Source: Nitzschia sp. DOCU1
Lineage: Eukaryota; Bacillariophyta; Bacillariophyceae; Bacillariales; Bacillariaceae
Direction: 5' to 3'
Assembly (NCBI GenBank): GCA_951394045.1
Contig: OX595993.1
Location: 2,170,001-2,234,000, forward strand
Length of the DNA: 64,000 nucleotides
Positions 15,866-26,029 of this stretch are shown here, piece after piece. The position numbers and the translations under genes were made by a program. Below the pieces are notes generated by a model. It saw nothing but the letters and a program-made list of their open reading frames with translations. It did not search any database and was not told the DNA's origin. Position 1 is the stretch's first letter; the number at the start of each line of letters is the position of its first letter.

Positions 15866-16909
15866 ATGGAACCCCGTCCAGACGGACTAGAAATTCAAAA
15901 CCAACAAACTCCTCCAGTAACAGCAGTCGTCAAGAAGGCCTGCTACTATCCAGTCCATCATGTCCAGCAAAGCGAGCCACGTTTATTTGACCGCTTCTTT
16001 CTCGAAGAATTGGACTGGGCATCGGCTGACTTGGACCAACTTTTGGGTTTGGGAGGACCCGGCCCCTTGAAATCTTCAAGGTGCAATCTTCACTCGGCTG
16101 AGTGGAGCAAGGGATCCACTGCGAGAAAGTACGCTAGCAGTTCCTCTTTGGCGTCAAGTTTGGTTTCGCCAAAACCGATACGAAGAAATCATATTCCTCC
16201 ATCATCGAGTACTCAGGGCGCAGTTGCTGGAGTAAGCAACCTGATGGAGTTACCAATGTCCAACGACAAAAAATATCGTTGGGAGTCGCCTCGTGGAATT
16301 CAGACCAAGATAGTGGAGAGTAATTGCAAGAACACGAGGACCACCAATTCCAAGTCGAGCACCCTGGTTACTCCCAGCACCACCAGCACCAGCACTTGCA
16401 GCATGAGCGGGGGCATGCTAACAACTTTCGGATCCAGCGGTGCTGGCAACAACCGACCATTTTTGTCAAAAAGGTGGTTCTTGTTGGCTTCGCCCGACAG
16501 CAAGGAATTCTTCCAGAAGCGCAAACAGCAGTCGAGCAACAGGCGTCGTATTTTTTCAGGTATCGGTGCTCCGCCTCTTTACGTACCCGCCCCATCTACT
16601 ACTACTAAAAGCTCAGAAGAAGGGGCCACCGAGTCCTCGACCGATAACGAAAGCAGCAGCAATGGTGAAGGAAAGAAACAAAGTTCCTTCGCTCAAGAAA
16701 GTGCTGCCGCAGAGGATTTTGGAACGGAAGATGCGTGGCTAGCCAACCCCGCCGCTTGCGGCGATACTAGTGCAAGAGCTCCGCCGCCATCACCCCAACT
16801 TGCATCATCGAAATCAAATAACAGCCTCTCGTCCCTCAGCAAAGTCTTATCGTCTCCTGGGTCACTCAGCATGAAGGCTACCAGAAGCCGGTTGCGATTG
16901 CGTCGGTGA
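15866..16909 (+). CDS. WAxADL-motif Ser-rich protein, member 1
   Basis: The protein has 347 residues and no introns. It is mostly predicted disorder, rich in Ser, Thr, Arg and Lys. Residues 48-63 read ELDWASADLDQLLGLG, the motif shared with the three proteins encoded at 17301, 22177 and 24668. The N-terminal part (ACYYPVHHVQQSEPRLFDRF) is the most ordered. The tail SSLSKVLSSPGSLSMKATRS is Ser/basic. There is no signal peptide or membrane segment, so it should be cytosolic or nuclear. No known domain recognised. It is the only plus-strand member of the cluster and is convergent with member 2. Confidence 0.75.
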   Translation: MEPRPDGLEIQNQQTPPVTAVVKKACYYPVHHVQQSEPRLFDRFFLEELDWASADLDQLLGLGGPGPLKSSRCNLHSAEWSKGSTARKYASSSSLASSLVSPKPIRRNHIPPSSSTQGAVAGVSNLMELPMSNDKKYRWESPRGIQTKIVESNCKNTRTTNSKSSTLVTPSTTSTSTCSMSGGMLTTFGSSGAGNNRPFLSKRWFLLASPDSKEFFQKRKQQSSNRRRIFSGIGAPPLYVPAPSTTTKSSEEGATESSTDNESSSNGEGKKQSSFAQESAAAEDFGTEDAWLANPAACGDTSARAPPPSPQLASSKSNNSLSSLSKVLSSPGSLSMKATRSRLRLRR

Positions 16910-17300
16910 GAGATGTTCAGCACTACATCATCCCTCTGCATTCAAAGTAGATTATGCTGGGTTCTAATTCTCATCCATCAGGAATACGACGCTGCTGAAA
17001 ACCATCCAGCCTCTTGCAATTATTCAGAACCATATCCTTCTTGGTTAGATTACGACAGCCACGACAGCTTCCGCAAACGCAACTCTTGAATCTTTTATTA
17101 TTGCAAGAAAACACGACATACAAATACTCTTTCCACCACTCGTAAGCCATTTAGGACGAAAGCAGTAATGTGCACCACAGGGCGTCTATGATTGGCTTGA
17201 GATGATTGAACGAAACGCCCCTCTCTAATGCTATTGTAGTAGTAGTAGTAGGTCTAGCTAGTAGCTATTGATACTAGAGTAGTAGTTGGTACTACTCTCG
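16910..17300. other. Convergent intergenic region
   Basis: The 3' flanks of members 1 and 2 meet here. It contains TAGTAGTAG runs and no gene. Confidence 0.4.
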
Positions 17301-23772: not shown

Positions 23773-24667
23773 GGTGTTTTGGTCGACGAGAGAAAGGTAT
23801 GAGAATCCTTTGCTGTCGGTGGGAATGGAGCAAAGTCGAGAGACAAGACAGGAAGGATAGGAATCTTGCCTTTTTTGGAGCAGTCGCGTCTGGCAACAGG
23901 TGGCATAAGTTTGCAAGGCAGAGAGGAAAGAAAGGATACGATACTGGGTATTCACTGGAATCTTGTGCTCGAAGGGAGTGGCTCGTGATTCGGGGCTATT
24001 CCGTTTGCCGAAGGGCTCTCTACGCGTAGGCGTAAATTTAATCGTAGAGATATTTTTGAAAACTGCACGGATGACCAATTGCGATAATGGATGCTGACGT
24101 CGTCGGCAGGTTTTTAAATGTGGGTACGCGGTTAATTCTACACAGCATGAAGAGAATTGGATGCAGCCGCATGAGCATTCACAAAGAGCATAAATAGCCC
24201 TCCGCGAACGTGGATACCGTTCGTGATTCTTTTCAATAGCGCCCTCCAATAGAATGCAGCCAAACGGGGACTGTTGTGTTCTCTCTTTTTCGTGACGCAG
24301 TTCACGTATCATACGAGGAACTGACGAAAGGGATCTTTGTCCTCTCATTTTTTGCCTCTTTTAGTTGCAGTAACAACACAATTTAGTGCACAGCAGTATC
24401 CCCGGGGTCAACTCTACTTAGCTTGTTGTTCCCATCAAAGGTGTTGGGGTCCGGGAGTCAATCTTATTGTGCGACGAAAGATATGAATGAGCGGACGCCC
24501 ATGGGTCGACACCACCAGCATTGTTCAACTTGGTGTCCTCGCTCAAGCACCACTACTAGGTCTGCGTCGCCAGGAATCAAATAGCCTTTGATCCATGGTT
24601 TTGCGGAAAGGAATTGGTCGAGAAGAAGCAATATTACTCTTCATCGTGAACAAACTGATTCTATTTT
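23773..24667. other. Region between members 3 and 4
   Basis: No separate gene. The minus-strand frame of member 3 continues open to 24348, but I treat it as 5' UTR. Confidence 0.4.
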
Positions 24668-26029
24668 TTATTTGAAAGCGCTGGGGGGACTAAGGATTCT
24701 TCTTGGGCATTTGCGACTGCGATAGAAGCGCCGCGAAAAGATCAATTCTGCAGGACCGCAACTTCCCAGAGACGAGGGCACGTCGAAGAGGTATTCTTCA
24801 CCGGTGGACTCGATGACTTGAAGAGCACTGTCAAGTATAGACAAGATCCGCTCCTTCTTTGTTAGCAAGGAGAGGTCACTGCTCCCCGACTGAACAGCCT
24901 CGGACGAGAAGACGAGATCATGGCGAGATCGTTCGTCGTCGACATTTTCCTCAGGGCTTTCGATGTCAGCACCTTCGCACGCGATACTCGTTTCTGTGGA
25001 TGACTCGCGGAGTGGATGAGCAGGGATGATGGGGAATAGGTTGCCCAAGCCTGTGCGCTCGATTTCAGCAATTTCCCGCTGCGGTGCATCAGCACCACCA
25101 CGATAGGCGGGGAACGAAGCGCACCTCGTTTGGGGGAGCGCACTCACTTCCATGTGGGGACGACCAGGGTGGTTATGATGGTTCTGTTTGTTCTCTCCAG
25201 AGCTGCCCAAGGATCTTTGGCTGTGCCGATGGATGTTAGGCATCACCGCTTGGCCACGTTTCTGGACGCTGTGACGATGAAGTTGGCCCCAGTCATCATC
25301 TTCCTCGTCCTCCTTAATGGTGGTAGTATCTGCTTGTTTTTCGGGGGCGCGTAGAAAAGGCCCATCGAGTGAATCAAGATCTGCTTTTGGATGCGCTGTC
25401 AGAGAGGTGGATGGAGCAGAGTTCAGAGTGCGGGCGAGTGCTCCTCCATCGGTGACTTCATGCTTGTTGGTGTCTCGCTTCGAATAGCGGCACCAGGGAC
25501 TGCTGAGCTCGGCTGACACGAGCTGAGCAACCTTCGAGGTCTTGCTTCTTGCGTCGGTAGTTCTTCCTCCCTCTTGGTTAGAGATTGGCAATGATGCTAC
25601 CGGTGGTCCTCGAAAGCTTGAGGATTGAGGGCAGATGCTTGTACTAGTGGTGCTGGGGATGACCACAGAGCCGGAAGACGAAGAATGTTGATGCTCGCAT
25701 GCTAGGTCAACGGAGGAAGGCGTGATCGTGGTCGTCTTGGTGCTGCTGACAACCGGGGGTGCCACCTCGGTGAAGCTCTCAAGTTCCTTCTCGAGATCCG
25801 CGCCATCACAAGAAGAACCAACTAGGGCGCTCCTCCTGACGCTCGGGGTCATTAGTATCGCGGCGCTCAGCATTTGCTGATCGTCGTCGTGGCCAGAGCC
25901 ATTCTTTGTCTCCTTCAGAGGCTTACACAAGCCATCTACTAGGCGGTTGCTGGAGGACACGACGGCGCTACCACTAGCCTTCAAAGACGACGCAGTACGT
26001 TGTGGGGGTCCTGATATGTTTCTGTCCAT
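24668..26029 (-). CDS. WAxADL-family protein, member 4 (divergent motif)
   Basis: The protein has 453 residues in a single exon, starting MDRNISGPPQRTASSLKASG. The motif region is LVGSSCDGADLEKELESF (~69-86): the ADLEK core is kept but the Trp-Ala is replaced by Cys-Asp-Gly. EDDDWGQLHRHSVQ in the middle and ERILSILDSALQVIESTGEE near the C-terminus match member 3. The rest is Ser/Thr-rich with acidic stretches, ending in a basic tail (FYRSRKCPRRILSPPSAFK). There is no signal peptide or membrane helix. Function unknown. Confidence 0.75.
   Translation of the reverse strand: MDRNISGPPQRTASSLKASGSAVVSSSNRLVDGLCKPLKETKNGSGHDDDQQMLSAAILMTPSVRRSALVGSSCDGADLEKELESFTEVAPPVVSSTKTTTITPSSVDLACEHQHSSSSGSVVIPSTTSTSICPQSSSFRGPPVASLPISNQEGGRTTDARSKTSKVAQLVSAELSSPWCRYSKRDTNKHEVTDGGALARTLNSAPSTSLTAHPKADLDSLDGPFLRAPEKQADTTTIKEDEEDDDWGQLHRHSVQKRGQAVMPNIHRHSQRSLGSSGENKQNHHNHPGRPHMEVSALPQTRCASFPAYRGGADAPQREIAEIERTGLGNLFPIIPAHPLRESSTETSIACEGADIESPEENVDDERSRHDLVFSSEAVQSGSSDLSLLTKKERILSILDSALQVIESTGEEYLFDVPSSLGSCGPAELIFSRRFYRSRKCPRRILSPPSAFK

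What the first reader, a model, noticed from the sequence alone, without database searches (positions are those of the whole stretch)
15866..26029. Four-member family of Ser/Arg-rich proteins sharing a W-A-x-A-D-L-[ED]-[QK]-L motif
The proteins encoded at 15866-16909, 17301-19088, 22177-23772 and 24668-26029 share LDWASADLDQLL, SSWANADLEQLL, SSWAHADLEKLF and SSCDGADLEKEL near the N-terminus. Members 3 and 4 also share DDWGxL and SILDxAxQV segments. All are long, disordered, lack signal peptides and are clustered. I know no named family with this motif; it may be a docking motif on rapidly evolving scaffolds.
Basis: seen in the sequence. Interest (0 to 1): 0.85.

Follow-up and report, generated by a model that had tools for sequence, protein, structure and literature searches.

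The report
Linked disordered proteins sharing docking motifs
Four neighbouring genes in a eukaryotic genome encode serine-rich, mostly unstructured proteins that share short, rare sequence motifs, best read as an old duplicated gene cluster whose surviving common parts are small protein-docking sites, two of them resembling known docking sites of vesicle traffic or autophagy.

Summary
Three of the four ORFs (M1, M2, M3) share W-A-x-A-D-L-[DE]-[QK]-L-[LF] well beyond chance: leave-one-out scores 38.0-45.5 against at most 23.5 for any other window string, and 0 of 1000 shuffles each. A relaxed DNA pattern hits 4 places in 52 Mb, 3 of them here. M4's N-terminal copy is not beyond chance alone (18 of 1000 shuffles). 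M4 is tied to M3 by two other rare motifs in the same order: DDDWGxL and SILDxA[LV]QV.

By DNA pattern, both recur in one other gene of the genome, an EH-domain protein with 11 [DE][DE][FW]Gx[FLM] motifs that looks like gamma-synergin. So DDDWGxL in M3/M4 may dock on the AP-1 gamma-adaptin ear; an ATG8-interacting (LIR) motif is a close rival. The genome encodes both candidate receptors.

No significant full-length similarity, no Pfam/NCBIfam match and no outside homologue was found, but eukaryote coverage of the protein database was not controlled. RS dipeptides are not enriched. Best reading: an old local cluster of disordered proteins held together by selected short linear motifs. What WAxADL binds is unknown.

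The parts
15866..16909 (+). M1, 347 aa, disordered Ser-rich protein
   Evidence: ORF and translation; no Pfam or NCBIfam match
16016..16045 (+). WAxADL motif of M1 (WASADLDQLL, residues 51-60)
17301..19088 (-). M2, 595 aa, disordered Ser/Arg-rich protein
   Evidence: ORF and translation; no Pfam or NCBIfam match
18930..18959 (-). WAxADL motif of M2 (WANADLEQLL, residues 44-53)
22177..23772 (-). M3, 531 aa, disordered Ser-rich protein with C-terminal helices
   Evidence: ORF and translation; frame open to 24348; model
23548..23577 (-). WAxADL motif of M3 (WAHADLEKLF, residues 66-75)
22832..23112 (-). 141-bp in-frame tandem duplication in M3; each copy carries DDDWGDL
   Evidence: 2.0 copies, 94% matches; 10 base differences, 4 synonymous and 5 non-synonymous codons
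23041..23061 (-). DDDWGDL, first copy in M3 (residues 238-244)
22900..22920 (-). DDDWGDL, second copy in M3 (residues 285-291)
22387..22413 (-). SILDEAVQV in M3 (residues 454-462), inside a predicted helix 449-472
24668..26029 (-). M4, 453 aa, Ser-rich protein
   Evidence: ORF and translation; no Pfam or NCBIfam match
25781..25816 (-). weak WAxADL-like stretch of M4 (SSCDGADLEKEL, residues 72-83)
   Evidence: 18 of 1000 shuffles score as high
25280..25300 (-). DDDWGQL in M4 (residues 244-250)
24815..24841 (-). SILDSALQV in M4 (residues 397-405)
20465..22051 (+). sodium:dicarboxylate symporter gene lying between M2 and M3; not a family member
   Evidence: PF00375, E 2.8e-86

Best explanation
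M1-M4 are an old, strongly diverged local gene cluster encoding disordered, Ser-rich proteins. Their disordered sequence has turned over almost completely, and what remains in common are short linear motifs kept by selection on the protein: WAxADL[DE]x-L-[LF] near the N-terminus of M1-M3, and DDDWGxL plus a C-terminal SILDxA[LV]QV helix in M3 and M4. The motifs work as docking sites that tie a flexible protein to folded partners. For DDDWGxL the likeliest partner is the AP-1 gamma-adaptin ear, as in the gamma-synergin-like protein of the same genome; ATG8 is the close alternative. Shown: the ORFs, the motif rarity, the linkage, the codon divergence, the shared motifs with the synergin-like protein, the presence of a gamma-ear and an ATG8 gene. 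Inferred: common descent of M1/M2 with M3/M4, binding, partners and cellular role.
For: Leave-one-out recovery of M1-M3, 0 of 1000 shuffles each. Genome-wide patterns: 3 of 4 WxxAD[LF][DE]xx[LF] hits within 7.6 kb; 3 of 4 DDDWGx[LF] hits in M3/M4; 2 of 3 ILDxA[LV][QE]-hydrophobic hits in M3/M4. 14 of 18 same-residue codon pairs at WAxADL and 5 of 7 at SILD (M3/M4) differ in codon. Same motif order in M3 (66, 238/285, 454) and M4 (ADLE at 77, 244, 397). The remaining DDDWGx[LF] hit is in a protein with an EH domain (26.8 bits, cut-off 22) and 11 [DE][DE][FW]Gx[FLM] motifs, 3 with W. Gamma-ear gene: PF02883 62.6 bits, best PDB match gamma-adaptin appendage 6.4e-07.
Against: Whole-protein alignments of the 6 pairs are not clearly above shuffled controls, so descent from one ancestor rests on motifs and linkage. 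The patterns were written from the members themselves, and the ILD pattern was widened after the synergin-like match was seen, so hit counts are partly circular; each of three of these scans also had one control hit, the DDDWG scan none. M4's WAxADL copy is at chance level. DDDWGxL keeps 3 of 5 codons identical between M3 and M4, so selection is not shown there. Synonymous codon usage does not mark the frames as coding: M1 -0.004, M3 -0.048, M4 -0.001, within the range of other frames and intergenic DNA; only M2 (0.051) stands out. No helix was predicted at WAxADL. DDDWGQL of M4 departs from the recalled gamma-ear consensus at one position. No binding data.
Confidence: 0.55

Rival explanations
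1. DDDWG[DQ]L in M3 and M4 is an LC3/ATG8-interacting region (LIR/AIM): acidic residues, an aromatic residue, two free positions and a leucine. M3 and M4 would be autophagy receptors or adaptors, M3 with two sites.
For: The canonical LIR is [W/F/Y]-X1-X2-[I/L/V] (abstract start of PMC5538626 in the listing), and WGDL and WGQL fit it at every position. The p62 LIR DDDWTHL (assignment recalled; 5 papers hold that string together with 'LIR') has the same DDDW and L. The genome has an ATG8 gene, 4.3e-47. The synergin-like protein's sites end in F, and a LIR pattern finds 0 of them, but finds both M3 sites and the M4 site.
Against: The glycine after W is the hallmark of gamma-ear motifs and, from recall, unusual in LIRs. 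Elsewhere in this genome DDDWGx[LF] occurs only in a synergin-like protein.
Confidence: 0.3
2. The proteins are unrelated Ser-rich ORFs and the shared strings are chance or a shared DNA element.
For: No convincing full-length similarity; M4's WAxADL copy is at chance level; weak codon signal.
Against: 0 of 1000 shuffles for each of M1-M3; motif rarity in 52 Mb; 14 of 18 codon pairs differ at WAxADL, against a copied DNA element.
Confidence: 0.07
3. WAxADLxxLL is an LxxLL- or LD-type or transactivation-type helix, and M1-M3 are nuclear or cytoskeletal scaffolds unrelated to vesicle traffic.
For: LDQLL, LEQLL and LEKLF fit L-[DE]-x-L-[LF] by eye; LxxLL, LD and transactivation motifs are recalled classes. 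M1 and M2 have no gamma-ear-like or LIR-like motif.
Against: No helix predicted in M1 or M3; ordinary helical moment; W-A-x-A-D in front of L is not part of those recalled motifs.
Confidence: 0.25

Closest known systems
gamma-synergin / aftiphilin type AP-1 accessory proteins
   Same: M3 (twice) and M4 (once) carry DDWG[DQ]L like the DDWGDF/DEWGDF sites of the synergin-like protein of this genome; SILDxA[LV]QV resembles its SILDCALEI (5 of 10,000 shuffles score as high); long disordered chains.
   Different: No EH domain (one search finds no Pfam match), 1-2 sites instead of 11; the SILD similarity fades when extended to 21 or 35 residues (53 and 275 of 5000 shuffles). M1 and M2 have no such site.
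LIR/AIM-bearing autophagy receptors such as SQSTM1/p62
   Same: DDDW-x-x-L core.
   Different: No Pfam domain found; glycine after W.
SR splicing factors
   Same: Rich in Ser and Arg.
   Different: No RRM or other Pfam domain; RS/SR dipeptides not enriched, in M1 and M2 fewer than in nearly all shuffles.
LD-motif and LxxLL docking helices (recalled classes)
   Same: L-[DE]-x-L-[LF] core of WAxADL.
   Different: Invariant W-A-x-A-D in front; no predicted helix.

Membership tests
   Met by M1, M2, M3 (0 of 1000 shuffles each), not by M4 on its own (18 of 1000)
   6 pairs, z 1.1-2.0, 13-44 of 300 controls reach the score; own-genome protein searches with M1, M3, M4 return the query and two weak unrelated hits
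gamma-synergin family (M3/M4) | EH domain | tested here: not met
   no Pfam match at E <= 1 in any of the four
gamma-synergin family (M3/M4) | gamma-ear-type acidic-aromatic-G-x-hydrophobic motif | tested here: met
   M3 two, M4 one, M1 and M2 none; the consensus itself is recalled, M4 has Q where it asks for P, D or E
gamma-synergin family (M3/M4) | binding to the gamma-adaptin ear | not testable with these tools
   gamma-ear gene present
LIR-bearing ATG8 interactors (M3/M4) | [W/F/Y]-X1-X2-[I/L/V] core after acidic residues | tested here: met
   DDDWGDL twice in M3, DDDWGQL in M4
LIR-bearing ATG8 interactors (M3/M4) | binding to ATG8 | not testable with these tools
   ATG8 gene present
SR proteins | RRM domain and RS-repeat enrichment | tested here: not met

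The most novel reading that the evidence does not exclude
The cluster is a lineage-specific set of disordered adaptors: WAxADL is a docking motif for a receptor not yet known to use it, and M3/M4 couple that receptor to the AP-1 gamma-ear or to ATG8, while M1 and M2 are versions without that second link.
Probability: 0.2. Interest if true: 0.65.

Novelty: new member of a known kind. Interest (0 to 1): 0.4.

Why it matters
Disordered, fast-evolving proteins are mostly left as unknown because ordinary alignment fails on them. Here local duplication, rarity of a string in the genome and codon divergence pick out a few residues worth testing. If the motif has a receptor, it would give a handle on orphan proteins of this lineage; if DDDWGxL binds the gamma-ear or ATG8, two orphan genes gain a place in vesicle traffic or autophagy.

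Tried and rejected
Homologues outside: three searches, all empty at E <= 10. M3 full length, 7995 candidates scored; a chimeric query holding the three WAxADL stretches, residues 1-60 scored, 199 candidates; M1 full length, 7986 candidates scored. M2 and M4 were not searched there as full-length proteins, and no control was run to see how well the database covers eukaryotes, so absence of homologues is weak evidence.

Other members in the genome: protein searches with M3 (itself only at E <= 1), M1 (itself and a hit of E 0.845), M4 (itself and a hit of E 0.0204 on contig C8). The C8 hit contains a stop and runs up to a sequence that looks like a DEAD-box helicase start (recalled resemblance); rejected as chance. 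M2 was not searched as a protein. All 12 genome searches are used.

Solved structures: M3 best E 2.4, M1 best E 0.13 (antibody chains over its Ser/Thr-rich part), both taken as noise. M2 and M4 were not searched.

Phosphorylation: basophilic RxxS/T, RRxS/T, RxRxxS/T, SP/TP and CK2-like sites are not clearly enriched over shuffles in any of the four (lowest: M2 RxxS/T, 64 of 500 shuffles reach it). I dropped the idea of a kinase or 14-3-3 platform as unsupported.

Amphipathic helix at WAxADL: not supported by hydrophobic moment or by AlphaFold without an alignment. Fold searches were not run because the models are mostly below pLDDT 50.

SILD helix as homology to the synergin C-terminal region: 9 residues score well (5 of 10,000 whole-protein and 3 of 10,000 C-terminal shuffles), 21 and 35 residues less so (53 and 275 of 5000 whole-protein shuffles; 17 and 71 of 5000 C-terminal shuffles). 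In an all-against-all 9-mer comparison, scores of the same size (31-32) also arise between other parts, e.g. M2 with the synergin-like protein (32) and M2 with M4 (32). I keep it as a lead only.

Codon usage as proof of coding: did not discriminate.

Literature: searches for gamma-ear motif text gave mostly reviews or off-topic papers; the gamma-ear consensus is therefore recalled, only the titles of Mattera 2004 and Duncan 2003 were seen in reference lists. Search of diatom disordered Ser-rich tandem genes listed nothing on this family among the 12 shown of 227. Six literal motif strings: 0 papers.
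Full report
What was checked. The window is G000:C9:2170001-2234000 of a 52.08-Mb genome in 63 contigs. The genome is eukaryotic: myosin motor, gamma-adaptin ear, ATG8. I did not identify the organism. A sodium:dicarboxylate symporter gene lies between M2 and M3 (PF00375, E 2.8e-86).

Is the WAxADL motif real? For M1, M2 and M3, yes. Each was scored with a profile made from the other two. The scores are 38.0, 45.5 and 40.5; the best other string among 36,052 positions of window ORF pieces scores 23.5, 20.5 and 23.0; 0 of 1000 shuffles of each protein reach the score. For M4 the profile of the other three gives 20.0, two unrelated window strings score higher and 18 of 1000 shuffles reach it. 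Genome-wide, WAxAD[LF][DE] has 5 hits (3 here), WxxAD[LF][DE]xx[LF] has 4 (3 here), and a version relaxed at both alanines has 9 (3 here), each with 1 control hit. Of the hits elsewhere, one sits directly after a stop, one has a stop 14 residues on, one is in a low-complexity 203-residue piece, and two of the relaxed version are in long ORFs of evidently unrelated proteins. Three of four hits within 7.6 kb would occur by chance in about 2.5 to 5 of ten million placements, but the pattern was written from these three, so I rest the claim on the leave-one-out test.

Conservation at the protein level. At positions where two of M1-M3 have the same residue (W left out), 14 of 18 codon pairs differ. 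So this is not a recently copied stretch of DNA; the amino acids were kept while codons changed. The rest of the proteins is not recognisably related: local alignment scores of the six pairs are reached by 44, 16, 13, 15, 14 and 26 of 300 locally shuffled controls.

What ties M4 in. M3 and M4 share DDDWG[DQ]L and SILD[ES]A[VL]QV, in the same order and after the ADLEK stretch: M3 at 66, 238 and 285, 454; M4 with ADLE at 77, 244, 397. DDDWGx[LF] has 4 hits in the genome with no control hit: two in M3, one in M4, one on contig C2. ILDxA[LV][QE] followed by a hydrophobic residue has 3 hits with 1 control hit: M3, M4 and the same C2 gene (a narrower version missed M3 because of its codon). I widened that pattern with the C2 sequence in view, which makes this count favourable to my reading. 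In M3 the DDDWGDL unit is doubled by a 141-bp in-frame repeat with 10 base differences, 4 synonymous and 5 non-synonymous codons.

What the C2 gene is. Its 1558-residue frame (L023:862-5535) has an EH domain near the N-terminus (PF12763, 26.8 bits, cut-off 22; best solved relatives are intersectin EH domains at E 0.0013, synergin gamma appears at E 0.21) and 11 [DE][DE][FW]Gx[FLM] motifs, 3 of them with W: DDWGDF, DEWGDF, DDWGDF. This is the layout of gamma-synergin, which has an EH domain and binds the gamma-adaptin ear directly (passage of PMC3444471). The gamma-ear consensus (aromatic-G-[PDE]-hydrophobic after acidic residues) is recalled. A gamma-ear gene is present on C7 (62.6 bits; gamma-adaptin appendage E 6.4e-07), with a second, weaker adaptin ear on C3 (38 bits).

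Reading. M3 fits the gamma-ear motif at every position, M4 at all but one. Both also fit the LIR core [W/F/Y]-X1-X2-[I/L/V] (abstract start of PMC5538626), and DDDW-x-x-L is the form of the p62 LIR (recalled; string present in 5 papers with 'LIR'). The synergin-like sites end in F and do not fit the LIR pattern used. I favour the gamma-ear because of the glycine and the precedent in the same genome, but the margin is small. The 9-residue SILD match to the synergin-like C-terminal region is reached by 5 of 10,000 shuffles, fading to 53 and 275 of 5000 at 21 and 35 residues, so it is a lead, not homology.

Structure. AlphaFold on M3 alone (mean pLDDT 44.7) gives C-terminal helices 422-442, 449-472 and 474-486; block means over 431-480 are 68 to 82; SILDEAVQV lies in the second helix. 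Neither M3 nor M1 shows a helix at WAxADL, and the hydrophobic moment there is ordinary. The SILD stretches do have high moments (97.5th and 92.9th percentile). What form WAxADL takes when bound is open.

Against the reading. Codon usage does not mark M1, M3 or M4 as coding, so coding rests on frame length, motif conservation and the in-frame repeat. There are no outside homologues from three searches, with eukaryote coverage of that database untested. RS dipeptides and kinase-type sites are not enriched, so neither 'SR protein' nor 'phosphorylation platform' is supported.

Verdict. A real, local, three-plus-one set of orphan disordered proteins that share selected short motifs. It is a new member of a known kind (lineage-restricted disordered proteins with docking motifs). 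The unusual part is the WAxADL motif with no recognised receptor; six literal motif strings from these proteins are in 0 papers of the library searched.

Noticed in passing
window 19378-19559: Inverted repeat with 37-base arms (19378-19414 and 19523-19559, 3 mismatches) between the 5' ends of M2 and the symporter gene; folds to -71.6 kcal/mol, z -7.5 against shuffles. Could be a small transposon or a hairpin RNA; copies elsewhere were not sought.
   Followed up: partly
L023:862-5535 (G000 C2): Gamma-synergin-like protein with an EH domain and 11 acidic-[FW]G-x-[FLM] motifs, 3 with W in place of F.
   Followed up: partly
window 35631-41892: Three tandem ORFs that look alike by eye; the first has a sub-threshold GDSL lipase match (22.4 bits, cut-off 32.9).
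   Followed up: no
window 53816-58633: One frame with myosin motor, IQ motif, ankyrin repeats and a protein kinase domain.
   Followed up: no
window 7993-9331: Two overlapping ORFs repeat the same ABC-transporter-like stretch (RIGIMANGRLRALGSAQHLKNKFGKGYQIE), seen by eye: a partial local duplication.
   Followed up: no
window 23586-23617: Perfect 15-bp tandem repeat in M3 just upstream of WAxADL, encoding the repeated SSMHS.
   Followed up: no
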